64,000 nucleotides of DNA. Source: Liolophura sinensis. Taxonomy: Eukaryota > Mollusca > Polyplacophora > Chitonida > Chitonidae. The stretch's first letter is position 1, and each line of letters begins with the position of its first letter. Below, piece by piece: positions 18,240 through 54,377 of the stretch. Below the pieces are notes generated by a model. The model was not told where the DNA came from, searched no databases, and worked only from the letters and a program-made list of their open reading frames with translations. The position numbers and the translations under genes are program-made. Location of the stretch: positions 45,565,116-45,629,115 of the forward strand of contig NC_088301.1 of the NCBI RefSeq assembly GCF_032854445.1. Reading direction: 5' to 3'.

Positions 18240-18900
18240 TCAGCAAGGCGATGATTCTGCTTGACTCTTCCACGAATACACTGGAACCACAAATTGGTGA
18301 TGGTAGTACAGAGCGACTTTATTTTACTCTTCCACGAATGTACCGGAACCACACATTGCTGATGGCAGTAAAGAACGATTTTAATCGCTCTTCCACGAAT
18401 ATACTGGAACCACAAATTGTTTATGGTAACACAGAGCGACTCCACTTTTCCCATGAATATACTGGAACCACAAATTGCTTACGGTAACACAGATCGATTT
18501 TTATATGCTCTTCCATGAATATACTGGAACCACAAATTGCTTATGGTAACACAGAGCAATTTTACTCCACTTTTCCATGAATATACTGGAACCACAAATT
18601 GCTTACGGTAACACAGAGCGATTTTTATAGGCTCTTCCATGAATATACTGGAACCACAAATTGCTTATGGTAACACAGAGCGATTTTACTCCACTCTTCC
18701 ATGAATATACTGCAACCAGAAATTGTTCGCTGAAATCAGAGCGATTTTGAATCACTCTTCAACGAATATACTGGAACCACAAATTGCTCGTGGCAATGCA
18801 AAGCAATTTCATCTACTCTTACAGAATATACTGGAACCACAAATTGCTCAAGGCAATACCAAGTGATTTTACTTGACTCCTAATTCCACGAATATAACGA
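18240..18900 (+). repeat. 62-bp minisatellite with local dimer structure
   Basis: About 10 copies built on GAATATACTGGAACCACAAA, TTGCTTATGGTAACACAGAG, CGATTTTACT and CCACTCTTCCAT. Starts at 18455, 18517, 18579, 18641 and 18703 are exactly 62 bp apart. Within that stretch copies alternate between two spacer types (TTTACTCCACTTTTCC versus TTTTATAGGCTCTTCC), a 124-bp dimer. Outer copies are more diverged, with a last trace near 19005. Confidence 0.92.
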
Positions 18901-34130: not shown

Positions 34131-34463
34131 GAGTGAGTGACTGTTTAGGGTTGAACGTCGTACTTAACAATTTTTCAGTCATATGACGACGAGGGAATCT
34201 TTAGGGTGCCTGTAATGTGCCTCCTTGTTGCAGGGCGGATTTCCACCGCTCTTTTATCTGGTGCTTCTTCACTGAGACCCCTTACCGAAGGCAAGTAAGC
34301 TGGCCCGCCCGAGCCTTTACACTGATACAGGTCAACCAGCTGAACGCCAAACGCAGTTACAACTTCCTCTTCCTAAAGCATTAGGTGTGACTCGACCCAG
34401 GATTGTCCCTGGATCTACCACTTCCGAAGAGGAAGCTCTACCAACTGTACTATCGGGGCCGGT
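34131..34463 (-). repeat. tRNA-derived SINE (family 2), near full length
   Basis: Read on the minus strand, the head begins CCGGCCCCGATAGTACAGTT then GGTAGAGC (A-box region), followed by GGACAATCCTGGGTCGAGTC (B box). The body ends at the 3' end with CGTCATATGACTGAAAAATT and GTTAAGTACGACGTTCAAC. This is a different family from the one at 29185; related pieces lie at 20736 and 46965. Confidence 0.8.
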
Positions 34464-35102
34464 CAGTTAATTAGTAATTCGATCCTATACATATGACTCT
34501 TCCTGCACACAGAATAGAGAGACGTATACATTTCAAACTTTTTATATATACACAAATGTACACGGGGTTACATAGCATCATAAATGTGGAAGAGCACAGA
34601 AAATCAGGGAACAAACTTTTAGCAAGCATGGAAAGGAATATGACAGACTTCAAGCGTGGCATTCCTTGTGTATAGCGAAACTGTGCCGTGCCAGGTCGTA
34701 TTCACGGGCAACATATCACTTAGTCATTCTTGATTTGTGTTGATTTGGCACAGAATCAGTGCCCTAGAAGCAACAACCAGAACACACACACAAAAAAAAA
34801 AAAAATGACGCTAACCAAGGTGTCGGTGATTATAAATCTGTAAAGCGTTTTCTCAAGACAAGGACAACCCAACTACCATGGTTTTAAAATATAAAATCTT
34901 ATACCGTACACTATTAAATATTTGCTGCACACTGCACACGCTACATAAAGAATCTGCTGTTGGCTTATAATGCAATTTTGATCAACGTGCGTCATATAGT
35001 TAAGCTTGAAAACTCCTATTTATAAAATAACGGAACGGTAAGGAAGTCTCCGTCGTAGTGGTCCACGCCTTTCATAAGACAGCAGTGGGTTGGTGCTTAG
35101 CT

Positions 35103-35146
35103 TCATGACGTAGAGCCCACGGGCGACTTCAAGGGAAGTTCAGCAA
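35103..35146 (-). CDS. Exon 33: C-terminal tail and stop
   Basis: A CCCTTCTAG acceptor, in the required phase, leads to [14 protein letters not shown] and TGA. With exon 32 the cytoplasmic part is only about 24 residues. There is no juxtamembrane protein-4.1-binding motif and no hydrophobic PDZ-binding end. It could instead be one of several alternative 3' exons. I see no clear AATAAA within a few hundred bases. Confidence 0.55.
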
Positions 35147-38100
35147 CTAGAAGGGAAACATGCATTTTTTGTTAGTAAATCATAGTCAGAATTGAACTTT
35201 ACGGCCGTATTACACCGATGTTAAATTATTATTAACAGTTTTATTGCAGTGATGAAGATAACGTTATTTAAAGTATAGATAGGTATTTTAATAGGATTTT
35301 TGGCTTTCTAATAACAATCTTAGAAAGATTCCACTAATAGGACGAAACTGATTGCCTACTATGGTTAAATGTTTCTCTTCGGAGTTCATACTTTGCTCCA
35401 TCCAATGCGCAAGATGTATAATATCCCCAGTTTTAAAATTATATGAACAATTACAATAAGTTTTGTTGTAAAATATAACACAGTTTTCTAGAGTAAAATA
35501 GGGTAAGCACCAGCTGTACCATTTTAGGAACAATAGTGCAAATTTAAACATTGTAAGACGTCCATATGTCATCCATGCTGTGTATGTAATGCTACACTAT
35601 TTGTTCTGCAAATGAATCTTGCTAGTCCCAATCCACAATGGACACTTATGCGGGCAGTTTCATCGACATAATACAGATAAATGTAACTTGAGCCTACATA
35701 TTATACCTTCATCTTGACGCCCTTTCTTCCTCCGCCTCGTTATGCAGATTATACCGACCACAGCTCCAATGAACACAACGCCTAGAGTGATGGCAATAGC
35801 CAATCCATATAAAATGGAAGAGTCATCTGGAAAATAAAAGTACAGCTGAAAAACCCGATAACAGCACATATTTTGATTGAGCATACAGAAGACAACTCCA
35901 TTACGCTGGTTTCCAGTAATAAGAAGGAGTAATGTTTTTTTTTAATTTTTTTTAGCGGAGACGAGAATTGTCTGTAAGTGAACTGCGATAGTATAATCAA
36001 GCGTTTCTCTTGTCACCTAATTCCACTGAGGCAATGGAAGGGCGAGGAATGCCCATTACTACTGTTTATCATGAACAGTTAAAATAAAGTTCTAACTGCC
36101 GTGTTCAGTCAACAGGCTGAACTTTCTGCAACAGTCGGCCTCATGTTAATAGTGAAACCCTGCTGTTTGTGTTTTTGTTCGTCGTGTATCAGCTACACTC
36201 CAGCCGACCACCGACAATTATACAGAATAATTTAACGCTCAATCCAGATAACAAGGTAGCTTCATTTTTTCCTACTCTAGATAATGACTGTAATGCACTG
36301 ATTAAGTCATTATATGTTAGTATTTTGTTTACCTCCTGGTTGAGGTGACAGTGGTAACGTGATCACAATCTTCCCTTGTGTTGTTCGCTCGCCCACGCCA
36401 TCCGTAACGACGCACACGTAATACCCAGTGTAGGACATGACGTCTTCGTCAGCCACGTGCTGCGTGTTCAACGTCAGCGTACTGGTGTTACGCGTGGACG
36501 TCACCTTGAAGACTTTGCGTGGATCGCTGTTCGTGGTTTTCAACTTGCCGATATGCTGGTCTGTTTTCAACCAGGTGAAGGTGGCATCTAATTTTTTGTC
36601 CAGAGTAACGGAAACCTGGATTGACACAGTCTCGCCTCTTGTCGCTGACACCTCCCGAGTGTGAGCCACAATCTGTAATGGTTCTGTGGGAAAATCCGGA
36701 TCAGATTCATGCCCATTGGTAGTTATCTTTGAAAAACAATATTCCTTTACCTTTATAAAAAGCCATATCCAGAAATTGTTTAGCAATCCACCGCAAATAA
36801 ATATTCATATCCGTTATGCCAGCTTATAATGTAGAAATTAAGGCTTATGTTAAAATAATGTGGTGAATAAGTGAAATGAAATTTTAAGCACAGTACTACA
36901 TAGATCAAATAAGAGAATTGGTGGTAAACCAGAAAACAGACAAAACTGAGTTCCGGTGGATGCATCTAGAAATGGATTGCCGCGTTTCACATTTTCAGAT
37001 AATTTTGATTTCACATTAGGTGTTGGAATTTTAAGTGCAGAAAGAAATTTCACTCAAGCCGTTGGTTACATTCCGAGACTTAACGATGGAGGCCCAGTAG
37101 GCAATAAGGCTTTTTGACTTACCCACTATATCCAGCACAGCTTCGGCAAAACTATAGCCCCTGTGGTTTGACACATTGCACTGAATAGTTTGAAAGTCCT
37201 TTTCTTTCGTTACATTTTTAATTGTCAGTATGGTGTTGTTCTCTCTAAAGGTATGCCTTTTATCACCTGGGAAAAGACATATTTAATCTGAAGAATAGAT
37301 ACTAAACAGCACATTTTAAGCCTTTGGGATAAAGGTACCAACAAACACTTAACTCATCATGATGTTAAAAGGGAAATCATTTTCTTTTTTTAGAAATTGA
37401 AATTGAGTATCTTTCAGGTCTGTAACAAAATTCGTGAACCTTTCTTCCTATCTTAAAGACTATCAGTTTATTATTAGCACTGCTTAATGAAGATTACACT
37501 AAGTGCAAGAACTAAATGCTATACAACATAAAGGCGTTTGGTATTAAAATATAACTGGCTTACATACCTAACAAACGCCTCCCGTTTTTGAACCAGCGCG
37601 GCTTTCGTGGCAACGGTTCGCCAGCCGCTGATCTAGAAACACAGGTGAAGTTTGCCTGGTCACCACGATACACCGTTGTGGACTTTAACCCTTTCGTCCA
37701 AATTGGAGGAGCTATGTATATGACATTAAGTTTGTTTAAATTACATTTTCCGTGAAATACACATGTTTAAATTGTGACATGTAAATTAAAATATGCACAT
37801 AATCATTCATGGGCTGTATAGTGTTCATATTCATCTTAGCTTTCTGTTATTCAGGTATAGTTTCTGTGGACGCCGTAGTCTGAAGCTTCATATAAAAGAC
37901 ATCTTTAATCACTTCTGGACGGTTTTATCCAATTTATTCAAATTTATGTTAAAAAGCATAGATCAAAGAATATATAGTGATTTGGCTAACTGCAATTTCC
38001 AGATCCGAAATTCATATACCACCTGCCAATCCAAAAGGTTATTTCAAATTAATAACGCGCAAGACACAATTAAGATGAAACCTTGACTGGTACACACTTA

Positions 38101-41100
38101 CAGGTTATGTCCACAAAGAACCTTGCATATGTTGCAATACTGGTTGAACAAAAATACCATCCCTGGTCACTCTCTGTTACATTTGTAATTAAAAGTTGTC
38201 TCCCGTTGTTTTCAAATTCCCAGCGCAAGGTGGCGTCGTCAGTTATGTTCTGCCTGTGCCATTTTAGTTCTTGTGCTGCCCTTCACAAAGGACAATGTGA
38301 ATAGATAAAGATGAATACCAAAAGACATGAAGAACCAATAATTTGAAGAGTCTTACAGTTATAGTAAGGGCTCATTGTCAGCATAGCATGCTTCAACGTT
38401 TTGCATTCCAACTAAAGATAGAATTACTATTTATTGAAAAAGACATAAAACGGCGTAGAAATGCCAATTTAACAAAATACCAAGCTGTGAAAATCGATGG
38501 GAAGCCTCGTAATTTTGCACTATCACAAACAATTATTCCAAGATATCAAATTTCTGTTTTAATTTGTAATAGTCTATGTGTACTCACTCTCCTTTAAGCA
38601 GACACTCCAGCCGCACAGTTTGTCCGATAAAAGCTGTGAGAGGCGGAGGTGTCTTGTATACTAAACGGGTGTCAACCTGAGCAGATTTACTGGAATCCTT
38701 CACTGTTGATTGAGGAGAAAAGAAAAGGCTCATTGAAGTTACAAGTCCGTCAACCGCAAGATTATAAGGATGTTTATATCTATTGGCTTATTCGGTTTAC
38801 TCATTTCTGCAAACATTCGGCATGGCCTGGACAGGAAAATCAGCACACGGCTAAAGCAGTCTTTACTCTCTAACATCGACAAAACAACAAGGCAGGTAAA
38901 TTAGTGTAAATTAGGTGATGGGCATTGCCACGCAAGTGCTGTGGTGCTGTTGTAATATCAAGTAGCAGGTAATCTACGTTGGATGCTTCCGCTAATTTTT
39001 GAAGAGCTTTGTCATGGTTTCATGTAGCATATATAACATTCGTTTCTGTTCAGCAAAGAAGCCTGCATTAATAGTACAACAGATTTTCCATTCACCCAAT
39101 AAGCCATCAATAAGAATTTAACCCACCTGTTACCCTTATAACGGTTAGCGTTATAACCTTGACCTTGATGCTGACATCCAGTAGTTCGTTGGTCTTCACA
39201 CAGGTGAAATTTGATCCGGTGTCTGACTGCATGACTGGCAGTATATTTAACGCACCTGGAACAGAAAAGTACCTCTATATATAGAATAAATATTGGCCCT
39301 GATTCAGGGGCAGCGGAACCATATCCAAAGTGAGGATGGGAGTCTCAAATAAGACGACGGTAAATATGTTCACCGTGATTAAAAACTTTGTTAATCCCTA
39401 GAAGAATGATATCAAATCTAAGTAAAACAGAAATCGTCAAATGCTGCTTACGATCTGACTTCTCAACTCTCCGAAATATTGACCATGAGGTTTGGCAAAG
39501 GAATCTTTGAAATAAGTAGCTGAACCTTGCAGAACATATGGAAATATCCTCACCAGTAGGGCTTTGGAAAATTCGTGTGTTATTGGTCATCGAAGATTTG
39601 TATAACCATGATGTTTTTGTAGCTGGTAGACTGTCAACGTGCTCGCTACATTCTAACCGGAGGAATCCACCTTCTCTAATGACCAGTTTGTGGCGTCGAA
39701 CCGATCGCAAAGCAGTTATTCCTGGAGGGGTATAAAAACATATATCCATGTACACGCACTTAAAGGGTTGCAATGTATAAAATCAGTCAAAAGGGAAGAC
39801 TTACTCCGGAAAAGTCACTAATATGATACCAAGAAAATGATATATTTTCAGACGATGTTTAGACTTCACTGTCACTATATAGGGCCTACGAGCATGCAAG
39901 GCAAAATCTGAAAAGGAAACTGCAAACGGTTTATTCATTGTGAGAGACTATGTATAGTTTATAGTTAACTTAGATTGGCATATATAAATTAACAAAATTT
40001 AAAAAAAAAAAGAACAGCAAAACGTACTGGGCGCCTGGAAATGAACCTTATCGGAGAGAGCTCTACCATTGGCATTGTGAGCAACACACTGGTAACTTCC
40101 GTCCAGCCGATCGTCCTCCGGCATAAGCAGGAGCCCACCAGGTACGACAAGATGTGGGCAGGACAAAGGCCCACCATTCTTCAACCAGGTGTAACTGAAA
40201 TATTGAACATGCATGGCGTACAGTGTCCCCAGCGGCTCGTATGACGTTTTACGTCGTTATATTTGTTGTAACACTCGCGTGGCGCGGTTGTTTACTCTTG
40301 GTTGTGCCTGGTTTTTTGAACACAGAAAGTTGAACTGTCATACAAATATCTGTTTTTTTTTTCACTGCTTAAAACTTAACACTTAAAACATTATCAAGGA
40401 TTTAGTCTGCCCAGAGTAAAGTAGGGTAGTTTTCCCACTACACTGGATCCAGCTGAGTAGAATATGATCCTTACATGTACCTTGGGAAGTTAGGCATCTG
40501 TAGTGCATCAAAGGGCAATGAAATTTTAATGTGGCTTTATGTACGAACACACGAAAATTTTTCCAGAGGTGCCAATATACTAACATGCAAGGCAAAATCT
40601 GAAATGGAAACCGGAAACAATTTATTCAGTGTGAAAGACTATGTATGCAAGCATACATAAATAAACACTGTCAACTCGTCTGAGCAAACAGAACAAGAAA
40701 ACTTACTGTACGCCTGGAAATGAACATTATAGGTATGGGTAATATGCCCCTCCCAACCTCCACCAAATGAAAAGGTACTGGAATAGTAGTTACTAAATGG
40801 GATCACCTTTTAATTTAGCAAATGTTAAAACACCGAGAGTACAGTTTGGTTCAGGTGATGTGTCGTAACCAATCAGTGTCCAAGAAGTGTGGAGCTCAGT
40901 ATTGGTTGAGTGCTAAATTTCGGATGTGAAGATCCAAGTTCAAATCCTGGTCCTGGCCTACATGAGTATAATTCCTTAAATTCTTTAAAGAATGAAGAAA
41001 ATAACTGTTGGGTAAATGTCCTTTTATAAATGACCCACGGTGGCCATAATCCCCCAGGTGTATAATTTTGGTTCGGACAGCCATGGTGATAGCAACATCC

Positions 41101-44100
41101 TTTACCATTCCTCTGCAGACTCATGCCCGAAGACTGTTGCCTGTACTAGGCTACAACCATGGAAATAGCATGATTAAAATACATTTACTCATAGTTTAAA
41201 GACCGTTGAGAATGTCACTAACATAATAAGAAAATGGGTCATCACGTTTTAATCGGTATGTTTTTAGATTTCTTGGCAAATGAGCAAGAAGCAGTGCGTT
41301 GAAGGTGTCGTCTACAGGTACATCACAGCAACATTGATGGCAGCACTGACAAACACTGTATTCTGAAATATTCAAGGTGTCCACATTATCCGAGAGTCCA
41401 TATTATCCCACTTTAACCTATGTTTGTATGAAAGGCATATTTTTAATGCCAAACATAATGAGCACAACATTATTTGAATGGCTGCAATGTGCAGTGGCTT
41501 TGGAAAGCATTGAAATGTGTTTGTTGATTGCTTGTCATAGGTCGGCAGTACACGTGCATAGTGGGAAGCTCTTGCGTTAGTACTATAGCAGTCTCCATCA
41601 CACGTATACTAAACAGGGTCATCTTACAAGGTTTTACGTACATCGGGGAAGGTGCACCGTTAGCTCTACAAGTAACTTCCTGGAAACCGGCCATCACATG
41701 TGATCTTTCCAGGGTTTCGACAACGTCCAGAGACACCCGAGCCGTGAGGTTCGTCACAATTGGCGACTGTGGTGCTTAAGAAAGAGAAACGATACATTAG
41801 TAATAGGTTGACCTTCGCTGATCATACACTTAAAAAGAAGTGGCTTTGTCATTATCATTTTAAGGTCATCACCTGAAATTAGTTCTGTCTCAAAGCATTT
41901 GGAATCGAATCCTAAAAAAAAAAGAAAGTGGTTTAAAGACAAGGGAAATTCAACAAGTTTTGCCGTACGACGTAGGCCTACTCATGAAAAGTTCACTTAT
42001 ATATGTTATTATAAGAAACAGTTACAGTTGCGTAATATGTCTTATGGACAGTATCTTACTATCACACCAGAAATGAGGAAAAGGTAATATAGTGGCATAA
42101 TTGTGTGTTTATTTAGCATACAAAGATTCTTGACGCAGGAGGAAGTGTCATAATTTCCTGCTGATCGCATATGCCTATAACAGAATACTAAGTCAGTTTA
42201 TCCTTACCAGATACCCCTGTGTTTCCTGGAGGAAGAGGCTGAGGTCCGTGGAGCTGTCTAATTTCCCGAGGAACGCTTTCACTCAATCCACAAGAGCTCC
42301 TTCGTATTTTACCTGATTCGGAAAATGATGATATTTAATAGTTTAATCATATAGGCTATTCAAAATCAAAAAATTCTAAAGTTAAGAGTCGTTTCGACAG
42401 AAATTATTTGGAGGGAATTCTGGCTACTGAATCTTGATCAGTAACTGTCTGTTCGACTTAGCCACTGTCGCTTAGGTTTGCTTGGTTTCCTTTATAAAAA
42501 TGTACGCTGTCCTCTAATACCATTTGCCAAGAAGTAGCTTCTCTTTCATAATTAACATTTGCTGTATATTTATTGCCACAATTAAAGAGTGTGTCACACC
42601 ATGCTACTCACCACGTCCGACAAGGAATACATGCTGAGGTGTAGGGTTCAGAAAGACATCCTGTAAAACGGGATGATCGTTGTAAAGTAATCGGAAGATA
42701 CACCCTTCAAATCCTGCACCAGGAACCGTTCTGGCTGAGAAGTAAGTACAACAGCAGTAGAGTGAAAATAAGTCTGTAATTTTATTTTTGGGCACCTTTC
42801 ATTGCGCACCTTTTAGTTTCTGGTTAAAACACGATGAGCAGTAAGATTATTAATAACTTATGATCTGTGCAACATAAGGGATGAACAAAGATAAACTTCT
42901 TACCTACTCTAGCAATATACAAGCGCTTCGGAGTGTCCAGAACGGTGTCCACTCCAGTTGGTGTTCTGGTCAGATTAAACACGTCGGTAACAGTGTCTAC
43001 CTGTGTAAAAAGACTGCATTAGTATAAACAACTTAATATAGCGGTAACAGTACATATCTGATATTTATCTTTAACCTACATGCCTCGTTAGGAGAATCGG
43101 TTGGTTAATCATTTTAATTTAGTTACTCCGACTACTTCCTAATCCATTCCTCGCAGAATTACACCTTATTATCAGTTTAAAAGTATAAAAACGATTATAT
43201 GATTATATACTAGTTGTTACTGCAGTGTTCTTGGGAAAGCGTGGCTCTTTATCTCTGACAATTAACCCAGCGTACTCTGACTGCATATAGAGTCATACCT
43301 TAAGAACGATCTCCTCTTCACTTCTGTTGTAGGTTAGAACTAAATGATGGATTTTGCCGTCGTTCACCTTGCCCGCACTACTGTGGATGGTATCCTCCCC
43401 ATGACCAACGTCAATGTATATCAATACACGGCCTGCATAGATTAAAATGCCAGTCAAAGCTTATCGATAGGCTAATGATTGTGCCAAGAAATAATTATTT
43501 CTCAGGCTACAACAACTGCTTTGATAATTTACCCAGAACGTTCACTTTTGATGCCGATTGAGAAGAGCTGTGCCCCTAATTGACAGTTTTATCTCAAGTT
43601 CCCCATATGGCTGGCGTATTATGCATGTGAAGGAGTTTGCTACATGTCATTACGGATACCGGGAATTTAAATGGAATATAAGGAAAATATACCTGCGTGT
43701 AAATGTTGTATCTTGTCAAAACCTTATTTAGAGTAACAGAATCGTAATTTATTCTAAAGAAAAGATGGAGCAATGAAAATCTGCACCATACCGTCAGTGC
43801 CAAGCTCTATGGAGATGAAGTCTGGAAACCCAGGATGAGCGTTAGTGATGTGTGTTAACACTCCTAGGTTCCTCGTTGTTTTAAAACCAAATTTTAATGT
43901 TCGGAAGATTCGTTCCTCTTCGCTGAGACGTTTGTCCAAACGATACATGATTCCCCCGTCTGCCTTTATATGGGCGCCGAGATCTGATAACACATAATAA
44001 AGACAAACACTGTTTTACGTTGATCTGAAAGGTTACTATTCAGTGAAGTGTTTGCATACGATATTTGTCTTTGTTTAAATGTAATGCTGTTTAATTTCAA

Positions 44101-47100
44101 ATAGATTCTACCACATCATAGATAACATTTTATATTGAATGTTCCCTTGCAATTAATGCCTTACCTAACCCACAGTAGCATCCAGTGAAAGCCGTGGCAG
44201 AGCAATCGCACATGTAAGTTGCAAAATAGTCCTGACATCGCCCACCATTCATGCACGGATTCGACACGTGGTCACATTTTCCTTGACATCCTATGATTAG
44301 AACCACATCTACGATTGTATTATAGTAAAAGTGACATAATTTACATTTTATTTTACCTTCAGTGTACGGTCATTTCAGATCACAAGTAACATAATGTTAA
44401 CTCAAACGGGAAAGGGCTTACAAAGGCACCAATATAGAATCACTGCAAAATGTCAAGACTAATTGCAAGACTTTATCAAATTTTAATACAATTTCTTTAA
44501 GTCAAAAATTTAGCTATATGTTGCCAGACACTCGCACTCCTGAAGCTATGTGAAAAGTAGGACGTAATAACATTAACAGTGCATTGTTCTTTGACTGATG
44601 GAAGTGAAAACTAAGCTACAAGCAACGACGGGCGTTTTTGGAAAAACTACAGTATTTATGGCTTGGCGGTATTTGCTCCCGTGGACTTGCAGCATCCTAC
44701 TCAGTTTTAGATTGAAAAGGTCATAATCCAAAATAGGCCACTGAGTGAAGATAGCATTTACACTAATTGTGTACTTTTATCAGGATGTCTGCGTGGATCC
44801 AATTATCCGAGAGTACAGTAATTTAGTCTTGCGACTGCCTCTACGAGCCCACCTCTTTAATTGTGCACTAAACATTGGTAATTAGTGGTCTTACTACATC
44901 ATAACAAAGGAAATCATGAAATGTTAACTCAATTGCAATATCGCGGTGTTGCAGTTGACCTTCTATTTTATCACCTGTAGGAAACGCACAGGTAAATCAA
45001 CACATTCTATTATTAACAAAGATCCTCATTCTCCTCGCTTTCAAAATAAAATAGAAGTTTCGCACAGACATGGCGCTGAAAAACTGTCTAAACAACATGG
45101 TAGAATACAAATCGCTGGTTCAAAGCCTCATAAATCCAACAGGAAGCTTTAATGACCTTCACAATTGACATATGCTATACACATTGATCTGTTGTCTCAT
45201 GTACTCTAATTTCCGATTATTATCAGTCATAATTCTGAAAATATCGCCCGGTGCTATTAATTGCTCTATACTTTCCCATATTGTTTTTCACCTTGTCGTC
45301 TGCTAACTACTGTCGCATGTAAGTAGACGCGTGTGCCCGATCTCGAATCAAAAGATGTAAATAAAACTTTATAAAACCCAGCCCTTTACAATGTCAAATT
45401 ATCGTATATGAATAGCAAGTAAAATGCGGTAAAACTTCAAATAAAAATATTTTACCTGGTTGTACACCAGTGGAAACTTTTGGACGTTTGCTGGCACCAA
45501 TTAGATCCACATATCGACCGTTCAACTGAAGCTCTCTCATACAACCAAGGAAACCATTCACACCCTTTAAGGAATTGCCTAACAAAGTACAAAAGTAAAT
45601 TGTATGCCTGGTACGTTTTATAGCAAGGCACTTCAAACAAAATGGTTTGGAGAAATAAAATTAGTAATAGCATTATGCATTCAACCTCTATCTGTGCCTA
45701 AAATGCATACAACAATTATTTCACGGATTGGAGAATTGAAACTACAGAACTTTAATCCACTATGGACACACAAAAGCTTACCACAGCTGAGAAACTGTTG
45801 AACATTTAATAGAACTGATAGGCGCTCTACTAGGTAGTTTAATTTCATTTTATTCATTTGGTGATTAGCGTTTCAGTGTCTTACTCAGGAATATTTCATT
45901 TTGATGGGGATAGAAAGTCCCAGGGTCCGGATTAAACCATCAGCATCAGGGAAGTAGCTGATCAACTTTGCCTTAAATGACCTTCAGATATTCACTTGAT
46001 GACAAGAAGCTTGGTGCATGTCCCTGTTTAACATGTGAACATGCGTACGCCATGCCTTTTAAGAATTACATTAAACTCTATGGCAAAACTTACAACAGAG
46101 AGGATTCACCTCTTGTTTGTGACCATTTTTAATATTTAATTGGACCTGATGCAGATATCTTGAACCTGCGAAGATAATGGACACACGGTATTTTGGAAAA
46201 TTTCCAATGCGAGGCTGGAATTGAAAATCTGTGACATGCAGAGTGATTCAGAAACAGGCATCTTATCTCCACGGTCAAGGGAATGGTATCATAGATACAG
46301 ATGAATCTGTGGTGATATAGAGTTAGAAGTCCAGCTGTAGTTAATACAAGCTTTACCAACGACAATTGGTTCCTTTGTCCGGAAATCGTATTTTGGAGTC
46401 CATGCTTCAGTTCTCCATATGCGTCCAGTTTCTCCATCCACGATGACTGTGGCCTCGATGACGTTAAACTCAAAATAAACGCTGTGCCACCTGTTGTCAT
46501 TTAGTCGAAAAGTGACGTCTTTCTTAAAAATTATTCTCTTCTTGTTTAAAATGAAGTCAACCACCAACGAGAAAGAACCTGTGACAAGAATGTTAATAAT
46601 TAATTAAAGGTTATGTCTGTGCTGAAAGAGGAGGTGAAAATAATAAAGATGGACCGCACTGCTGTGGCGGGAATGTTATAACGACAGCTTTGTAAGAGGT
46701 CCGGGATCTAGTCAGCGTCAGATTATAAGAATAATTCATTATATGAAGACTTTATCAATATGAACAATCTTACGTGGTATTTCTCTGGTATAATTACGTG
46801 GTATTTCTCTGGTATAAATGCTTGTTAAAAGTGACGTCAACGTAGCATTTTAAGTAATTGTATATCAGTAACGTCTAAAAAATTAATATTTGGTGCTGCC
46901 GACAGTGAAGTATTACACAGAAGACACTAGACATGACACCACAACTAGTCAAATTATATTGACAACGGGCCAACCAGTCCTGTTTCCTTGCTCTAAACTC
47001 TCAGTGATGAGCCCCAAGCAAAGCAGCAACAAGTACCATATTTTTGGTATGACCCAAGATGACATTGGGAGGTGTGCAAATTAGTACTATTTTAACCATT

Positions 47101-50100
47101 TAAATGAATAGCTGGAATAAAATACTAACGGATGACAACTGACAAGAGGCATGATTTTACCGGTTATGTATTGCCATTCTCCAACTATCACACTGACGTC
47201 GCATTTCGTGTTTTACTCTCCATGATGTGGTTTTTGGTTTGTATTATAAACTATTTATAAGAAGTACTGATCGCCCCTATGCGTTATGATGACTCTGGTA
47301 TCATGTCAAGTGTTTTCGGCATGCAGTTTAAGTGCAATGGTTGCTGCAAGGAGACATCTTTCTGAAATGATTGAAATAGTCGCCATACTTAAACTTCAAT
47401 ATGAAGCAAGTCAGCCAGCAAGCAATCCAAAAATAATACATGAAGAAGGGAAAACCTGCAAAACACAGCAACGTGTTATTTCCAAATCACGTTTCAAAGC
47501 TTAAAGTAAATTTTGATCGTTTTATACAGAACAAACAATTACCTGACAATCTGATTGCCAAAGCGTTGACGATGGCGCCATCTTTTGGATCTGTCAAACC
47601 TTGGGCATGTATTAAATAAGCTCGCCTAATCCCTGTTCTAAACTGGAACGAAAGGTCGAGAGGCGTTTCCGTGAATGTCAGAGGTAGTTTGGTGCTGGCA
47701 CCTAACTTGTTAAACGTCACTGTGTTGTCCAGTACAGCTGAAAGTGAGTAGACATGATAAAAGGAACACAGTGCCATTAATATGAAGCCAACAAATATTA
47801 TGATATTTCAAGGTAATATGCAATTTGCGAGCAGCCAAATTATATCATCGTTCGGTCTAATTCTGTGCAAAAGTCACATATTGGCCATAACGTGGGCGTT
47901 ATGCTGCTACAAACAAATATTTCGGGGGTATTACAGAGCAATTCTTGTTGCATGTTGAGTTACAAATATTAATTGGTTTCTGCTATGCATACAGGGAAAC
48001 TTCAAGAACCAGTAGTTTGAAGAACGTTTTATAAAACTTACTGTCACCTTGGCAAACTACTGGGCCAACACGAAATCTTCCTTCTTTGTCATCATCAATA
48101 GTTCCTGTGTCGCCAAAACGAACCTGTGTGACAGGGAGGTGGGACTTCTCAGACAAGTATCCGCTATCCGAGGCTGGCACCGATGAACCAGCATCACAGT
48201 TGCAAGACTGTTTGTCCAAACAACCCTTGGTCTCACTGGCGCATTCGCAACTATTTGTGTCTGGTTTTGCTCCACCCCAGTACGTGTGGGACTGATTATT
48301 ACGCCCTACCCACCATCCAAAACTGAGAGATTCATGAGGGCCATCTGAGAGCGTAAACCGAAGTTAAACATTTAGCCGTGTTAATCTTTATATATCACTA
48401 CTTTCAAATTAAAAAATTTAAGAATTTTTAAGGCTGACATATTTTCAAGTTGAAAAAATGAATTACCTCCGTTTGACAGCAGTTTCGAATTTGTGCAGTT
48501 GTACTCGATGAACTGCCGACAACTTGCTGAACGATTGATAAGAGCATAAAGTGCGTATGAGTCAGATTCGTATATGATATCCTTTACGAAGGACCCCGGG
48601 GCTTGAAATCCATCCACCACGGTGTCATTCAACGGAATCGTCCGAATAATGGTTTGCGCCGGACGATTTGGATATTCTGAAAAGCACGCGAAAAAAAAAA
48701 AGAAAAAAAAAAACAGATAAGCATCTATGCTTCTTTAGTTATATTCTAATAAAGTGATACAATGGGGCGTACAAAAACCGCTGGGATTTAGGACGTATGC
48801 ATAAAGTATTCATTACAGCCATAACAAATGTTTGGACACCTACAATATTCTCTAGCAGCATCATATTTAGCGTAACCATGCTATTAACATAACCGACCTT
48901 TGTGACAAATAACAGGCTGTGGTCTGATTGGTCCTGACCCGTCAACATCAAGGACAGTAGGCATGAACCTGGTACCGGATGGAATGTCCACAAGGTCGCA
49001 AGACTGTCGGTATAACGCTGGAATGGGGACAGATGAAGTCACTATGTCTGTCGAATACGGTGGTAACAAAATAAATTTAGTTTATATGATTTCCGCTGAT
49101 GTTTCTTTTTAAATACAGCATAGTCTGGTTTAATGGAAGTACGATACCTATCTGGGAAATGCAAATGCAAACTAGAGCATGATTTAATGTCTGACGTGTA
49201 ACTTACGTGTATGGCAAATGGCACCGGTATACCCTGTATCAGAACAGTTACAGGCAAATCCGCTCCTCGTCTGATGGCATTGTCCTCCATGAGAGCAGCT
49301 TTCTTCAGCACATCTGTGCCCAAAAGGGTGAAATTGTTAATTGTTAATGCAATATTTCAATGTTCAAATGCGTTTTCTATTATTATTCATGTTTTATTTA
49401 TTTATTAAGGTCGATAGAGTACAGCTACCGGATTAAAGAATGGTTGGGTAAATCTTACAACTTCAAGGAATGGAGTAATATTTTACGTGCGTAAAAATCG
49501 TGACCTGAACAAGAACATGAGATATTGTGAATTTTGTCAAGGTCTAATGGTATGTGTCGTGACAATTTTATAGGATAACTGCACTGCGGCCTAATAGCAA
49601 AGGTGAGATTCGGGATGCTTTATAGCAGCACAGAGAAAGCCTCGACTATAGCATGTTGTCAAATTTAACTTTGCCCATATGTTCAAAGTAACTTGTTCCT
49701 ATAGGCAATTTTTGTTGTTATGTGTTGGAATTGGGTAATTTACATGCCGTCTATCTGTGCCTATTTGGTGGCATTTAAAACTTTACAATTTCTCAAATGT
49801 GAAACTGTTTTCCGTAAATGATTTGAACAGCAATTGTTATGGAATGGATGGTCGTGTTGTAGACACTTACGTATTTGGAAGATCACATCTGCCAACAGTC
49901 GCCATTGTGATGTCCTGTGGATTAAGTCGAGACAGATCCATGTCTTTACCATCAATGAGAACATCTTTCATACAACCTTTGAAACCCATCGAGTTAGGAA
50001 TTCCACCTATAATAAAACAGTAGTAATATTTTCGAAGATAACGAATACTTTTAACATCTTTGCTTGACAACATTAAGTTTCCAGGTGAGATATCCAGCCA

Positions 50101-51534
50101 CAATGATATCGCAGGGATGTGAGAAGACTACTATACTATAACTACAACTATTCTGGTTTTGTACAAAATCACTATAAAAGTATTCCCTCTCAGAGAATCA
50201 ACTTGGAAAGGAGTCGTGGTAGGTGTTATAACCGTAGTCGAGAATTGATTTAGATCCTTCAACAATTATTGACTTTAACAGGTATAAGAAAATTATACTT
50301 TTACGGAGAGTGACTAAATTTAGGCGATATCTTCCGATTTTGCTGTATAAATACCTAAATAGAACATCCGCGTCTCGCTGTTTACTAAGCTCTTTATCTT
50401 TTCGTCTACGATTGCCCACTTGTCCAGGGTCATAGTAAGCCCCGTTGAGTTGTTCAGTTCAAATGAAAATCTGTGCCATTGTCCGTCAGCTGGTCTTATG
50501 ATGAGCCCTTTGAGTCCAAAAACGTGGAAGAATCATTTACAATTGTTTATGAACAGTTAGCTTTGGTAGGGTTTCAAGGAAGACTCTATCTTAGTCCAAC
50601 ATTCTACAAAGTATCGGCAATATCTAAAAGCCCATTTCGTGCTGATTCTAAACATGGTTTTCATTATTTGCTCTATCTATTTTTATAGCAATACAATTCA
50701 AGTGAAGACTGAGGTTCTGGCCACGGGATCACGAGAGATCTTAGACTTAAATCAAAATTTCAAATCACTTTAAAATTGTTATTTCTTACGTAACAAGGTC
50801 AAAGTATTTCTTGACGTTGTGAATTCTGAGTAAATTATTGTACTACAAATTGGAGCAAAAATAAGGGAGAAGAGCATACCAAGGATAATGATTGAAATTT
50901 TGACATAAGTCTAAGGTTCGTGACCCTGGGGTCTGTTGTGGATTTTCGAATCATACGTATCAGCTAAAGAACAGTCACGTCGCCTATTCCTTACAGTTGT
51001 TAAACATTGCTCTGATTGCTATATTTTACATTCAACATCAGTACACATGTAGTACTACGTTTACATCTCTGTTTGATGTGAAACTAGCAGTTATAGAATG
51101 TTTAAAGACATAAAAGAATCGGCGACGTCACTCGCTTCAGTGTGTCCTTTATGTCCCAAAAAATCTAATGGAGAACCTGAAACAAAACTTAAAAAAAAAA
51201 ACAGACAAAAACATATCTGGAATACCCGTCCATCAATATGGCATATGTTACACGTGGAAAAGTTCGTCACCATAATTTGCCAAATGATATACTGGCAGTC
51301 ATGGTATAAGACAAAAAATCTTGAGTATGGGGAATCTCCGTGGCCGATTTATTTAGCACGCCACCATGGCGCAATGACCGAGAAGCCTCACACGAATGCG
51401 GTTGTGCGTGGGAAGGCCGGTCACCAACCTGTGAATGGTCGTGGGTTTCCCCCGGTCTTTGCCCGGTTTCTTTCCACCATAACGCTGGCCGTTGTCGTGT
51501 GAGTGAAATATTAGAGAACGGCGTAAAACACCAA

Positions 51535-51581
<47 letters not shown>

Positions 51582-54377
51582 ATACAGTCAAGGAATAGCT
51601 ATAAACTACAATTAAATTACAATGAACAAAATTAAATCAAGAGGCAAAGCCTTCATGACCCCACCAAAGTTCACTGATAATACAAGAGAGCCATTAGAAG
51701 ATTAAAGCATGAATGTAGTATTAATCAAGGTTTTCGGAATTGAGGAATTGGAGACAAGTAGAAATGTTCATCAATAACAGAACATGAACCAGACAACAGC
51801 CTTACCTGTGTATAATTCATAAAGAATTTGCACAACGGATTCGCCATCCATATATATCGCCAGTAAGTGCATGTTATCTTCTAAATCAACCTGGAGGTAA
51901 AAAACATGTGTACTTTAAACACCCCACTTTAAAACTGAAGCACAGTTTGAAGGCCAAGGACGATTTTAAGATAGGATCGCCGTCAGTATTCTACAGTATT
52001 CTGACTGTAATGTAAATTTTGGAGCATCAGACCAGCTAGAGACAATGTATTAGCAAGAAATGTTGGGAAAGTGTACTACTTAAATGCGATATACTTTTAT
52101 GCTTAGGTGGTTCTTGTTCTCAAAACATGTTCCCGTAAAAACAGTTATTTCTGACATGGACCACACTTGTAAGGTTTACATCTTGTGTATCTTCGCTAAC
52201 CTAAATAAACAGCTTAACATACGTTGGAAGTCAAACAGAAACATACTGTAATATTCACTCCATGTCCCATGTCCACAAACAGCAGAGTAGCATTGATGTC
52301 GTACGTCCTTAGGTCAAATGCGGCGCTGTACACAGAATTATCCCCTTTTGTCTCAGAAGGAATTCTCAGGTAAGAGTTATCCCCATGGTACGTCACATGT
52401 TTAATTGGGATCTGAATTATGAAATAGGATACTTCAACATAGTACATTAGATAACAAAATTACATGTCGTAGTTTGCAAAGCTTCTTTTAAGTTGGCAAT
52501 TCCGGATATTTTTGACTTGTTCTGACTTTACAGCAGCCAGTATGGATATTAATATTTAACGCAACTTACTTTACATCCGCTTTGAACGTTTCCATGAAAG
52601 TCTGCTGGTGGCTCTTGACCTTGAATGCCATCAAACAACGCTACGCCATTCAACAATACGCCCTGGAGACATCCAATGAAATTCGGCTCTAGAGCGTTGG
52701 GGTTAGATGTACCTGGGTCTGCGCCGCCAATATAAATCTATACTCGGAAAAATAAACGGAAAATTACACATATATAGGCATTTAGAATCGGCTCGGAAAG
52801 TTTCCAAATAATAATCATATTTTACGCTGTTATGATAATAGATTCCAGTAGTAATTTCTAGCTTACCTTGAATGGTAATAATACTAAAAATATACCTGCT
52901 CTGAGGCCAATATTTGAAAAAAAATGTGTGGAAGTAATTCCATACCATACTCCCTAGCTCCAGGTATTGTAAGTTTTGGATGATCTTAGTGTTCGAGTCA
53001 AGCTGAAGACGGACACTGGCACCATCGTAGGTGATTTCCACGCCATGCCACTCACGCTCTACGTCCAGCGGCAGAGACGCCATTTCCATTAAGACATTAT
53101 CTAAATGAAGTATAAGAACGCTAATATTTTTACAGAAAACAACAAGAAACAATGTAGTGGTACTTAATACTAGCAAATTGTAAACTTCATTATCAGATCT
53201 CGATTGTAATTAGTGGTTTTAGAGAAGAAATAAAACCTTATACATTCACTGGTAATTCTTTGCAAATAGTGACGAAAGATAAAGGGATTCGGCAACTGTA
53301 AAATTCCACAATGTTTGTCGATAGCCTTAAACAACTAACCATTTATTTGGTACCAACGAAGACGATATTCCTTTACTTTCACCTGGAACGACTTGTCCTC
53401 GTTTTGCAGAATTGTGCCATGTCCATTGTGAGAGAGGAAGCGAAAACCTAGGTGGAACCGCTTTGTAGTTGTCGTTGAAGTATTATAAGAAGCATAGGCC
53501 TCGCCGTCAAATTGTAACACACCTCCAACTGTTTGTGCTTCTGGAAAAACGGATTTATCAACGAGGTTAAGAAATGTTTTTGTTTGAAAAAAAGAAGAAA
53601 GCTCCACACAGCTGTAAATATACAGGTAGCTTGCTGAGGTGTAAGCTTTTGACTAATATGCAAATAGCTGTTTTGTGACATTTCTTATTTATCTCTTGCA
53701 TCATGTAAGCCACGTAAGTTCCTAAAAATCTGTGATGTCGGTAAGGCTCACATCATCCTGGTTACTATCTGTACATTTTAACACGGATATGCAATGTAGA
53801 TGACAATTAAACTTTCAGATTATGAACACCGTAGTGGTTGAACATTTTAACGTCAACTTCATAGAGTGTAGGATGTCTTCGTCAGAGAGCAAAACAATTC
53901 AACATCGTCTGAATATGTAAACACGAGATCGTGTCTGGGCTCAGGTTTAGCAAACACTGCTTCAGTTATACCAGACGTTGTGATAGCTAGGGCAGGCTAT
54001 TCGGCTAAAGATAATTATAGCAATTCCCCGACTCGCTCTTCCTACACACCTCTGATATGCCTGCACCAGTCTAATGTGCTAGGAGAAACGATAAAGCTTA
54101 TCTAAACCTTTCAAATACAATACGCATGAAAGTTCAAACTATCCATCTGATCAACGATATATCAACTTCAGACGAATGACAGGTTTGGTCTCAAATAGAA
54201 GTGTATACATCTAGAATGTTGCATAAACAGCAGAGAAACAAACACTTGTCAAAATAAAACTAATAAACACATCAAACTGTTACTATGTGTAAAGAACGTA
54301 CCTGTCACATGAAATATCCAAAGTGTACAGCAATAGATCGTAACATACTGAAAAAAATGCCTTGGGGAAACATCCAT
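35103..54377 (-). CDS. Caspr/neurexin IV-like receptor fused to five Ig domains (33 coding exons)
   Basis: Predicted single-pass surface receptor of about 1,650 residues: signal peptide, LamG, LamG, EGF, fibrinogen-C-like, LamG, EGF, LamG, linker, five Ig domains, membrane helix, short tail. Coding exons (high to low): 54377-54302, 53540-53340, 53100-52946, 52737-52570, 52411-52247, 51890-51806, 50507-50355 (or from 50489), 50006-49871, 49313-49207, 49047-48898, 48676-48467, 48344-48042, 47737-47543, 46578-46357, 45578-45456, 44290-44165, 43983-43792, 43432-43299, 43000-42904, 42734-42612, 42312-42208, 41911-41873, 41774-41642, 40194-40028, 39721-39554, 39255-39127, 38702-38588, 38280-38102, 37711-37568, 37266-37123, 36683-36333, 35826-35707, 35146-35103. 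Every junction is GT/AG and phases agree throughout, so the sum is divisible by three. Family members organise glial or neuronal junctions with contactin-type Ig partners. Unlike them it lacks the discoidin domain and gains Ig domains. Function in this animal is inference. Confidence 0.82.
35707..35826 (-). CDS. Exon 32: membrane helix and stop-transfer basic cluster
   Basis: After DDSS comes [20 protein letters not shown] then GIICI, a 24-25-residue hydrophobic stretch ending in TRRRKKGR. This is a clear type I membrane anchor with cytoplasmic basic residues. It ends at GAAG|GTATAA. Reading on without splicing would give a stop after about 15 codons. Confidence 0.88.
36333..36683 (-). CDS. 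Exon 31: Ig domain 5, single exon, first cysteine absent
   Basis: A 351-nt phase 1-1 exon holding a whole Ig-like domain: [47 protein letters not shown] and [14 protein letters not shown]. The B-strand cysteine expected near IQVSV is replaced by valine, so the canonical disulphide cannot form. Unlike Ig1-4 it has no internal intron. Confidence 0.8.
37123..37711 (-). CDS. Exons 29-30: Ig domain 4
   Basis: Residues about 1385-1480. [20 protein letters not shown] then [10 protein letters not shown]; a phase-1 intron follows the C strand, as in Ig2. [20 protein letters not shown] carries the second Cys. The interdomain introns are phase 1. Confidence 0.83.
38102..38702 (-). CDS. Exons 27-28: Ig domain 3
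   Basis: Residues about 1287-1385. [15 protein letters not shown], then ELKWHRQN across a phase-2 intron placed between the first Cys and Trp, as in Ig1. [19 protein letters not shown] gives the second Cys. Confidence 0.82.
39127..39721 (-). CDS. Exons 25-26: Ig domain 2
   Basis: Residues about 1188-1287. [20 protein letters not shown] then SWLYKSS gives Cys and Trp in one exon. The phase-1 intron falls later in the domain, after FQSPT, and [16 protein letters not shown] supplies the second Cys. The domain ends ITLTVIRV at a GTGGGT donor. Confidence 0.8.
39890..40060 (-). repeat. Duplicated segment, copy containing the exon 24 donor
   Basis: GCATGCAAGGCAAAATCTGA, AAACGGTTTATTCATTGTGA, GAGACTATGTAT and GCCTGGAAATGAAC recur in the same order about 685 bp away at 40575-40740. 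One copy is therefore derived from the other, including the 3' end of an Ig exon. Confidence 0.8.
40028..41774 (-). CDS. Exons 23-24: Ig domain 1
   Basis: Residues about 1088-1188. [20 protein letters not shown] gives the first cysteine and core tryptophan across a phase-2 intron. [20 protein letters not shown] gives the DxGxYxC motif. The donor GTACGT at 41641 is the one that keeps phase. The 1.45-kb intron between the two exons holds a SINE-like insert and a partial copy of exon 24. Confidence 0.82.
40575..40740 (-). pseudogene. Relic copy of the 3' end of Ig exon 24 inside intron 23
   Basis: Contains ACATGCAAGGCAAAATCTGA, AACAATTTATTCAGTGTGAA and, on the minus strand, GTTCATTTCCAGGCGTACAG then TAAGT: the last coding bases of the Ig exon with an intact GTAAGT donor. 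The rest of the exon is gone, so it is a pseudo-exon left by a local duplication. Confidence 0.7.
40885..41110 (+). repeat. Candidate tRNA-derived SINE in intron 23
   Basis: GGAGCTCAGTATTGGTTGAG then TGC resembles a pol III A box. AGATCCAAGTTCAAATCCTG is a B-box match about 45 bases later. The body downstream (ACCCACGGTGGCCATAATCC) is unlike SINE families 1 and 2. It may be a third family or a tRNA pseudogene. Confidence 0.45.
41873..42312 (-). CDS. Exons 21-22: Pro/Ser-rich linker between LamG4 and Ig1
   Basis: Exon 21 (105 nt) encodes [20 protein letters not shown] then [15 protein letters not shown]. Exon 22 is a 39-nt microexon encoding [12 protein letters not shown]. Both are phase 1-1 with proper acceptors (AATCAG and TTTTTTTAG) and donors (GTAAGG and GTGATG). 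They join the Caspr-like and Ig parts; a microexon of this kind is a typical place for alternative splicing. Confidence 0.65.
42612..43983 (-). CDS. Exons 17-20: LamG domain 4
   Basis: Residues about 855-1040. [79 protein letters not shown] and [18 protein letters not shown] fit LamG, although the usual W of DGxWH is I (DGKIHH). In Caspr proteins this is the last LamG before the membrane; here the frame continues to a linker and Ig domains without a membrane helix. Confidence 0.82.
44165..44290 (-). CDS. Exon 16: EGF-like domain 2
   Basis: A symmetric phase 1-1 exon. It encodes [18 protein letters not shown] and [17 protein letters not shown], with the NGGxC and Y-x-C-x-C signatures of EGF modules. 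A leading GCQGK and a cysteine late in the exon make one or two cysteines extra compared with EGF 1. Confidence 0.88.
45456..47737 (-). CDS. Exons 13-15: LamG domain 3
   Basis: Residues about 635-815. [60 protein letters not shown] and [20 protein letters not shown], then [13 protein letters not shown], follow LamG order. Exons 13-15 all begin and end in phase 1. Intron 13 carries part of a SINE (46965-47075). Confidence 0.85.
46765..46818. repeat. 25-bp tandem duplication in intron 13
   Basis: TTACGTGGTATTTCTCTGGT followed by ATAA occurs twice in tandem. Confidence 0.85.
46965..47075 (-). repeat. SINE family 2 fragment in intron 13
   Basis: AATTATATTGACAACGGGCC then AACCAGTCCTGTTTCC matches 20910-20945, followed by TATTTTTGGTATGACCCA. 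A body fragment without the head. Confidence 0.5.
48042..49047 (-). CDS. Exons 10-12: fibrinogen-C-like domain of the Caspr type
   Basis: Residues about 415-635. This is the most diagnostic segment. It contains [46 protein letters not shown], the cysteine cluster [39 protein letters not shown] and VGPVVCQGD. In Caspr/neurexin IV proteins the same sequence of motifs (RQYIEYxC, WWxGxxxxxxxYWGG, CxCxxxxxCxxxxxxCNCD, KxxLPVxxVxxGDT, LxVGPLxCxGD) lies between EGF 1 and LamG3. This position and pattern separate the gene from ordinary neurexins, which lack the domain. Confidence 0.9.
49207..49313 (-). CDS. Exon 9: EGF-like domain 1
   Basis: One exon codes for [18 protein letters not shown], then [16 protein letters not shown]. 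Six cysteines fit C-x4-C-x5-C-x8-C-x-C-x9-C, with the GYTG turn before the last cysteine. It starts in phase 2 and ends in phase 1. Confidence 0.9.
49871..52411 (-). CDS. Exons 5-8: LamG domain 2
   Basis: Residues about 200-380. [16 protein letters not shown] opens the domain; [34 protein letters not shown] and [13 protein letters not shown] follow; [20 protein letters not shown] closes it, with GRCDLPNT. Exon 7 may start at 50507 (adding GLIIRP) or 50489; both keep frame. A SINE sits in intron 6. The domain reads straight into EGF 1. Confidence 0.83.
51328..51585 (+). repeat. SINE family 1 with (AAAT)n tail, in intron 6
   Basis: Opens TCTCCGTGGCCGATTTATTT (A-box region), then GCGCAATGACCGAGAAGCCT, GTGCGTGGGAAGGCCGGTCA, ATGGTCGTGGGTTTCCCCCG, CCACCATAACGCTGGCCG and CGGCGTAAAACACC, and ends in about 13 AAAT units (51533-51585). 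It is inserted antisense to the receptor gene. Part of the head, including the B box, is deleted. Confidence 0.88.
52570..53540 (-). CDS. Exons 2-4: LamG domain 1
   Basis: Residues about 26-200. Visible LamG landmarks: [17 protein letters not shown] (first strands), [20 protein letters not shown] (the WHxV block), [12 protein letters not shown] across the exon 3/4 junction, and [12 protein letters not shown] with the final SGC. The two late cysteines form the usual LamG disulphide. For exon 3 two GT donors are possible; only the one after 52946 keeps frame into exon 4. Confidence 0.85.
54302..54377 (-). CDS. Exon 1: start codon and signal peptide
   Basis: Encodes [20 protein letters not shown] then IFHVT. 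A basic n-region is followed by a hydrophobic core, as expected for secretion. It ends in phase 1 at CAG|GTACGT. The overlapping ATG four bases away is in another frame. Because the exon supplies a signal peptide directly before LamG1, I take it as the true 5' coding exon; an alternative upstream first exon is not excluded. Confidence 0.75.

What the first reader, a model, noticed from the sequence alone, without database searches (positions are those of the whole stretch)
35103..54377. Caspr/neurexin IV-type ectodomain continued by five Ig domains in one reading frame
Seen: 33 exons with GT/AG junctions and matching phases run from a signal peptide, through LamG-LamG-EGF-FBG-LamG-EGF-LamG, into five Ig domains, a membrane helix and a stop. 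Known: CNTNAP/neurexin IV proteins have that LamG/EGF/FBG order but pass into the membrane after the last LamG, and act with Ig-domain contactins. Inference: a gene fusion or exon shuffle joined a Caspr-like receptor to the domain type of its partner, giving a receptor that might carry its own cis ligand.
Basis: partly seen in the sequence, partly recalled or inferred. Interest (0 to 1): 0.88.

Follow-up and report, generated by a model that had tools for sequence, protein, structure and literature searches.

The report
Chiton Caspr receptor with Ig domains
A chiton carries a small family of genes for cell-surface proteins that join, in one chain, the outer part of one junction protein (Caspr / neurexin IV) to binding domains of the kind its usual partners carry, a combination that these searches listed from no other animal.

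Summary
On the minus strand, 54377-35103, one open chain of 32 exons (31 introns, 62 of 62 sites GT/AG) encodes 1629 aa: signal peptide, LamG-LamG-EGF-FBG-like-LamG-EGF-LamG, five Ig domains, membrane helix, short tail. The 39-nt 'exon 22' lacks support; exon 10 starts at 49017. The organism is the chiton Liolophura sinensis. A two-gene artefact is unlikely: two further NCBI proteins of this species, from another chromosome, have the same order, and gene C matches the window gene in 27 of 27 compared intron phases. Two more copies are indicated 60-90 kb away. The three sequenced proteins form one clade (100/100). A canonical neurexin IV exists separately, without Ig hits. The Ig block matches Ig1-Ig4 of neurofascin/contactin; neuroglian-type hits lie about 110 kb from the nearest copy. 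Among 120 listed hits (of 1176) only Liolophura proteins carry LamG and Ig, but the searches miss known relatives. The 'own cis ligand' idea is untested: conserved tail motifs are lost and copies diverge with different C-termini. I favour a lineage-specific adhesion or recognition family.

The parts
54302..54377 (-). exon 1: ATG and signal peptide (by eye)
   Evidence: under the threshold of the hydrophobicity scan
52570..53540 (-). exons 2-4: LamG1 (follows the signal peptide directly, no F5/8C)
49871..52411 (-). exons 5-8: LamG2
49207..49313 (-). exon 9: EGF1
48042..49017 (-). exons 10-12: FBG-like region of Caspr; exon 10 start corrected to 49017
45456..47737 (-). exons 13-15: LamG3
44165..44290 (-). 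exon 16: EGF2
42612..43983 (-). exons 17-20: LamG4
42208..42312 (-). exon 21 (phase 1-1): last Cys of LamG4 and stalk; aligned with the canonical stalk exon
   Evidence: absent from P0001, B and C:
40028..41774 (-). exons 23-24: Ig1
39127..39721 (-). exons 25-26: Ig2
38102..38702 (-). exons 27-28: Ig3
37123..37711 (-). exons 29-30: Ig4
36333..36683 (-). exon 31: Ig5 (single exon)
35707..35826 (-). exon 32: membrane helix and basic juxtamembrane stretch
35103..35146 (-). exon 33: end of the short tail (PVGSTS) and TGA; lacks the canonical EAKGAELADNP and EWF/EFF motifs

Best explanation
A real, single gene of the chiton Liolophura sinensis: a Caspr / neurexin IV-type ectodomain without the discoidin head and without the conserved cytoplasmic motifs, with a phase 1-1 cassette of five Ig domains after the LamG4 stalk exon, whose first four correspond to the Ig1-Ig4 horseshoe block of the L1/contactin class. 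It is one of three genes with NCBI protein models (A, B, C), with two more indicated (D, E), most simply from one fusion followed by tandem and inter-chromosomal duplication. Shown: sequence, architecture, intron phases, one clade for A-C, a coexisting canonical neurexin IV. Inferred: the LamG/EGF/FBG-like head binds partners (contactin-like or others) while the Ig block, here next to the membrane rather than at the free end, provides homophilic or heterophilic adhesion; without the conserved tail the protein would not be held in the septate junction in the canonical way. I take it to be a lineage-specific, diversifying adhesion/recognition receptor rather than a replacement for neurexin IV.
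For: Open 32-exon chain, 62 of 62 intron sites. NCBI model P0001 of this gene joins LamG and Ig. P0002 and P0076 of the same species carry LamG and Ig, on contig C1 of 96,433,062 bp. 27 of 27 compared intron phases equal between A and C. Chimera clade 100/100 and 99/99 for the Ig block alone. The canonical gene at C1:77.44-77.47 Mb has F5/8C, membrane/tail exon and no Ig hit: a built-in negative control. D shows EGF, FBG-like, LamG and Ig hits in order; E one scored EGF hit (LamG pieces by eye) followed by Ig hits; neither fed the Ig profile. Ig1-4 collinear with neurofascin/contactin. Neuroglian-type hits at C7:45,365,676-45,398,727. Identity 33% A-C, 44% B-C; C-termini differ.
Against: No transcript or protein evidence was available. 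NCBI's model P0001 skips several exons and reads exon 9 in another frame, so its joining of the halves may be prediction, not RNA. B's intron phases were not tested, and its model starts inside LamG2. D and E were not assembled; 7 of their 12 Ig hits have E 0.018-0.93, and an N run lies between them. Fly neurexin IV without its cytoplasmic region can still form septae (PMC3195077, passages), so a lost tail does not exclude a junction role. Function and binding are inference. Long branches (warns) make rates unsure.
Confidence: 0.6

Rival explanations
1. Self-contained junction receptor: the Caspr ectodomain binds its own or a neighbouring chain's Ig block in cis, so one chain replaces the neurexin IV-contactin pair in chiton septate junctions.
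For: In fly, the first LamG-EGF-LamG module (LEL1) of neurexin IV is needed, and with membrane and cytoplasmic parts sufficient, for contactin association (PMC3195077, passages); by order the matching unit (LamG2-EGF-FBG-like in the naming used here, my mapping) is kept. Tail-less fly neurexin IV still forms septae. Ig1-4 belongs to the class of its partners.
Against: Canonical neurexin IV persists in the genome. The tail lacks the conserved motifs; fly neurexin IV without its cytoplasmic region is not enriched at septate junctions (PMC3195077, passages). The Ig block scores no closer to contactin than to L1. Paralogues have diverged to 33-44% identity.
Confidence: 0.2
2. Fast-evolving recognition family (self/non-self, gamete or immune): tandem copies with transmembrane, GPI-like and possibly soluble forms bind varied ligands.
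For: Several copies, B and C in tandem, D and E indicated in tandem; long branches; differing C-termini.
Against: No polymorphism, selection or expression data; the GPI-like tail of B is judged by eye and hydrophobicity only; the short form of C may be a frameshift or model error.
Confidence: 0.25
3. Two neighbouring genes (a Caspr-like and an Ig receptor) wrongly joined by the reader and by NCBI.
For: No transcript was available; exon 22 between the halves is doubtful.
Against: The same order recurs in B and C on another chromosome, in C with the same intron phases. No stop and no second membrane-like stretch lies between the halves of A. The canonical stalk exon has the same phases as exon 21 (by eye).
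Confidence: 0.04

Closest known systems
Neurexin IV / Caspr (CNTNAP) family
   Same: LamG-LamG-EGF-FBG-like-LamG-EGF-LamG in this order, collinear with molluscan neurexin-4 at 28-33% identity; stalk exon of equal phases (by eye).
   Different: No F5/8C domain; five Ig domains after LamG4; tail without the EAKGAELADNP and EWF/EFF motifs.
L1CAM family (neurofascin, neuroglian)
   Same: Ig1-Ig4 collinear; best solved relative is neurofascin (162.9 bits); Ig1 split by an intron at the same place and phase as in the chiton's own neuroglian-type gene (by eye).
   Different: No FN3 family in the Pfam scan; the Ig block sits next to the membrane; the tail is only about 25 residues.
Contactins
   Same: Same Ig class (contactin-4 129.2 bits); B ends in a GPI-like hydrophobic tail, and contactins are GPI-anchored (PMC9633819, passages).
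   Different: Five not six Ig, no FN3, Caspr head in front; A has a membrane helix and tail.

Membership tests
Neurexin IV / Caspr | F5/8C (discoidin) domain at the N-terminus | tested here: not met
   No PF00754 in A; local F5/8C profile is convincing only in the canonical gene, best window E 2.2; C goes from signal peptide to LamG1. B's model starts inside LamG2, so B was not tested
Neurexin IV / Caspr | LamG-LamG-EGF-FBG-LamG-EGF-LamG order | tested here: met
   (FBG by alignment only)
Neurexin IV / Caspr | membrane helix directly after LamG4 stalk | tested here: not met
   five Ig domains lie between
Neurexin IV / Caspr | tail with conserved juxtamembrane motif and C-terminal EWF/EFF motif | tested here: not met
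   present, with variation, in P0003, P0005, P0010 and the chiton canonical gene, absent in A
Neurexin IV / Caspr | binds contactin | not testable with these tools
   needs a binding assay
L1CAM | six Ig then FN3 repeats (recalled) | tested here: not met
   five Ig, no FN3 family up to E 1 in the Pfam scan
L1CAM | ankyrin-binding tail (recalled) | not tested
   tail is about 25 residues after the helix; no motif search was run
L1CAM / contactin class | Ig1-Ig4 horseshoe block | tested here: inconclusive
   sequence collinear with solved horseshoes; no structure was predicted
Contactin | six Ig, four FN3, GPI anchor (FN3 and Ig numbers recalled) | tested here: not met
   five Ig, no FN3, membrane helix with tail

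The most novel reading that the evidence does not exclude
A chiton receptor family of perhaps five genes in which the neurexin IV head and an L1/contactin-class Ig block, parts of members of one junction complex, have become one chain, perhaps after the parent genes came together at a neuroglian cluster, and which has then diversified into membrane, GPI-like and perhaps soluble forms as a lineage-specific recognition system.
Probability: 0.25. Interest if true: 0.85.

Novelty: new variant of a known kind. Interest (0 to 1): 0.7.

Why it matters
Fusion of two proteins in one species is a classic hint that the separate proteins act together (recalled, the Rosetta-stone argument). Here the parts belong to a conserved adhesion complex (neurexin IV, contactin, neuroglian; Caspr, contactin, neurofascin 155 in vertebrates; PMC3195077, passages) of septate and paranodal junctions. 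A natural single chain offers a direct test of how Caspr and Ig partners face each other, and the family suggests that a conserved junction protein can be turned into a diversifying receptor family.

Tried and rejected
Rejected: two separate genes (see rivals). Rejected: exon 22 and the 49047 start of exon 10. Rejected as proof: the small chance of a long open chain, because exons were chosen to be open. Tried without result: deciding L1 against contactin by tree (one contactin row only, long branches). Papers on a Caspr-Ig fusion or on neurexins in chitons: 7 searches listed 20 of 45, 3 of 3, 20 of 39, 20 of 39, 10 of 131, 10 of 23 and 4 of 4 papers; no listed title or abstract start describes it; only open-licence PMC papers are held. 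Protein search with P0002 residues 640-1288 (LamG4 and Ig block) returned P0002 itself, 4 sidekick and 1 nephrin protein. It missed the known relatives P0001 and P0076, and one search missed P0076, so silence about other species is weak evidence. The FBG-like exon at C7:11.62 Mb (L040) was not resolved. No structure prediction was run: the three NCBI proteins (1221, 1288, 1438 aa) exceed the 1200-residue limit.

Not answered, machine busy (genome search), 22 calls: 3, 17, 18, 19, 22, 23, 29, 32, 36, 38, 42, 46, 52, 53, 54, 55, 56, 67, 69, 74, 84, 85. So no genome-wide F5/8C count and no genome-wide search with canonical neurexin-4 were obtained.

Full report
What is there. The minus strand of the window from 54377 to 35103 holds one open chain of exons. 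After the two corrections below the model is 32 exons and 1629 aa; the 31 introns have 62 of 62 sites GT/AG (one search prints 64 of 64, two of which the script sets by definition).

Domains. Pfam gives four LamG stretches, two EGF and five Ig stretches, and no F5/8C domain. Alignment with molluscan neurexin-4 shows LamG1, LamG2, EGF1, the FBG-like region, LamG3, EGF2 and LamG4 collinear with the canonical family, and that the canonical protein then enters the membrane where this one goes on into Ig domains. One helix follows the Ig block (exon 32), then about 25 residues. The signal peptide is judged by eye.

Species and prior record. The best protein hits are from Liolophura sinensis, a chiton. 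P0001 (LOC135470954, 'uncharacterized protein', 1221 aa, 95% identical over 65%) is NCBI's model of this gene: it joins LamG4 to Ig1 but skips several exons and reads exon 9 in another frame, so it is a weak witness by itself. A correction notice about the species name of the chiton genome was seen as listing and outline only (PMC12441733).

It is a family. Of the 70 hits, 2 carry both LamG and Ig in the precomputed Pfam column (P0001, P0002). Of the 120 listed hits (1176 passed the threshold; 7992 candidates, those sharing most words, were scored), 3 do: P0001, P0002 and P0076, all from Liolophura; the next hit falls from 1138 to 525 bits and has the canonical domain list. P0076 begins with a signal peptide and LamG1, again without F5/8C; P0002 starts inside LamG2, so its N-terminus is unknown. 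Identity is 32.7% A-B (1268 aligned), 33.7% A-C (1416) and 44.3% B-C (1137) (made with the uncorrected A model). The lack of other species is weak evidence: one search missed P0076, one search missed both P0001 and P0076, and I do not know how many other chiton proteomes the database holds.

Genome census. Search of the own genome with P0002 and local tblastn place: A, the window gene, C7:45,600,218-45,619,492 minus; B (P0002), C1:75.764-75.784 Mb minus; C (P0076), C1:75.807-75.835 Mb minus, in tandem with B; D, C7 plus strand, scored hits 45,511,255-45,521,676; E, C7 plus strand, from a scored EGF hit at 45,524,480 on. In one search a local Ig profile over 6734 open frames gave 30 hits at E up to 1: 9 in the C locus and 9 in the window gene (both partly by construction, since A, B and C fed the profile), 12 in the D/E stretch (not in the profile; E 1.5e-7 to 0.93, 7 of 12 above 0.01), 0 in 55 kb around the canonical gene, 0 in 30 kb right of the window. 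D and E are therefore indicated, not assembled; an N run lies between them, and LamG pieces of E and the start of D were read by eye. A weak hit to the canonical membrane/tail profile (E 0.059) lies at C7:45,542,770, 3 kb beyond the last Ig hit of E, and may be its membrane exon.

Canonical control. At C1:77.440-77.471 Mb the genome has a canonical neurexin IV: F5/8C exons (E 4.7e-28, 2.5e-22, 2.9e-9), LamG/EGF parts, a phase 1-1 stalk exon (phases by eye) and, about 2 kb on, a membrane/tail exon with EAKGAELADNP and EFFI (tail profile E 2.6e-24). The window gives no convincing hit to either profile (best E 2.2 and 0.8). So the chimeras are additions, not a substitute.

Exon evidence. For C, 27 consecutive junctions from inside LamG1 to inside Ig4 were solved with exact agreement to P0076; all 27 intron phases equal those of A without exon 22. 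The first junction, the later ones, and B, D and E were not compared. The Ig cassette enters in phase 1 after the stalk exon, leaves in phase 1, and the borders between Ig domains of A are phase 1, as expected for module shuffling (recalled principle). Exon 10 starting at 49017 restores PLYRQSC, matching PLYPKTC in B and PMYPSSC in C.

Relationship. On the FBG-LamG4 part, A, B and C are one clade with 100/100 support among 24 rows; their end branches (1.77, 1.2, 0.86) are long against a median of 0.4, with the program's warning about long branches. The Ig1-4 part also forms its own clade (99/99) outside the L1 rows (12 rows), compatible with one fusion event.

Source of the Ig block. Single-sequence search of solved structures: neurofascin 130 bits, contactin-2 113. 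Profile of A-C: neurofascin 162.9, titin 129.3 (part only), contactin-4 129.2, Dscam 103.6, Robo2 95.1, sidekick-1 83.9. On local proteins: neurofascin 127.4, contactin-3 121.8, beetle neuroglian 110.1. I read this as L1/contactin class, slightly nearer L1, unresolved. Neuroglian-type hits lie at C7:45,365,676-45,398,727 plus, about 110 kb from D and 200 kb from A; an intron inside Ig1 of one of them falls at the same place and phase as in A (by eye). B and C lie 1.6 Mb from canonical neurexin IV on C1. The closeness of each chimera cluster to one possible parent suggests an origin among parents brought together by rearrangement, but it was noticed after the fact and other Ig genes also lie nearby (C7:45,422,740-45,423,724).

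How it may work. Known from papers: in fly, the first LamG-EGF-LamG module of neurexin IV is required for contactin association and, with membrane and cytoplasmic parts, sufficient; neurexin IV without its cytoplasmic region reaches the membrane and forms septae but is not enriched at septate junctions and does not give the full complement (PMC3195077, passages). Ig1-Ig4 of contactin 1 and neurofascin 155 form a horseshoe and adhere through Ig1-Ig2 (PMC9633819, passages). Inference for the chimera: the head can still bind contactin-like or other ligands; the Ig block, now membrane-proximal and tethered at its N-terminus, can adhere or be covered by the head; lack of the tail motifs removes the canonical anchor. 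B ends in a hydrophobic stretch with three residues after it, GPI-like by eye; C's NCBI model ends after Ig4, with an Ig5 exon present but out of frame, which may be a soluble form, decay or a sequence error. Diverging copies with different C-termini favour a lineage-specific adhesion/recognition family (about 0.45 in my judgement for the functional part, above 0.9 for the fused gene itself; 0.6 overall).

Verdict. It is a new variant of the Caspr/neurexin IV kind, failing three tested membership features (F5/8C, helix after LamG4, tail motifs) while meeting the ectodomain order. Seven literature searches listed nothing that describes it, within an open-licence library and capped lists.

Noticed in passing
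L016 (C1:75,807,371-75,806,964): Ig5 exon of gene C (P0076) is present but out of frame with the NCBI model, which stops after Ig4: soluble form, decay or sequence error.
   Followed up: partly
L016-L017, C1:75,814,888-75,816,530: Seven extra exact copies of the VCRSLGYPE end of the Ig1 first-half exon of gene C lie in the following intron; possible alternative exons.
   Followed up: no
L011, around C1:77.4422-77.4424 Mb: Extra copies of the stalk exon (EDMCGFEE..QP) lie upstream of the real one in the canonical neurexin IV gene (by eye).
   Followed up: no
L040 (C7:11,619,501-11,622,500): A further Caspr FBG-like exon, 38% identical to canonical neurexin-4, in an unresolved gene.
   Followed up: partly
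G000 C7:45.12-45.62 Mb: Cluster of neuroglian-type, other Ig and chimeric Caspr-Ig genes.
   Followed up: partly
G000 C1:77,278,016-77,282,051: Contactin-like Ig hits about 160 kb from the canonical neurexin IV gene.
   Followed up: no
G000 C7:45,542,770-45,542,925: Weak hit (E 0.059) to the canonical membrane/tail profile just beyond the Ig hits of copy E.
   Followed up: no
window 1-2486; 3229-4186; 5938-9316; 18264-18848: Long minisatellite arrays with units of 33/99, 47/94 and 62/124 bases.
   Followed up: no
window 34140-34480: tRNA-like, SINE-looking stretch just downstream of the gene on the minus strand (recalled resemblance); ARAGORN found no tRNA in the window.
   Followed up: no
P0001: NCBI's model of the window gene lacks exons 1, 2, 4, 7, 10, 11, 16 and part of 12 and reads exon 9 in another frame; the public annotation probably needs correction.
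   Followed up: yes
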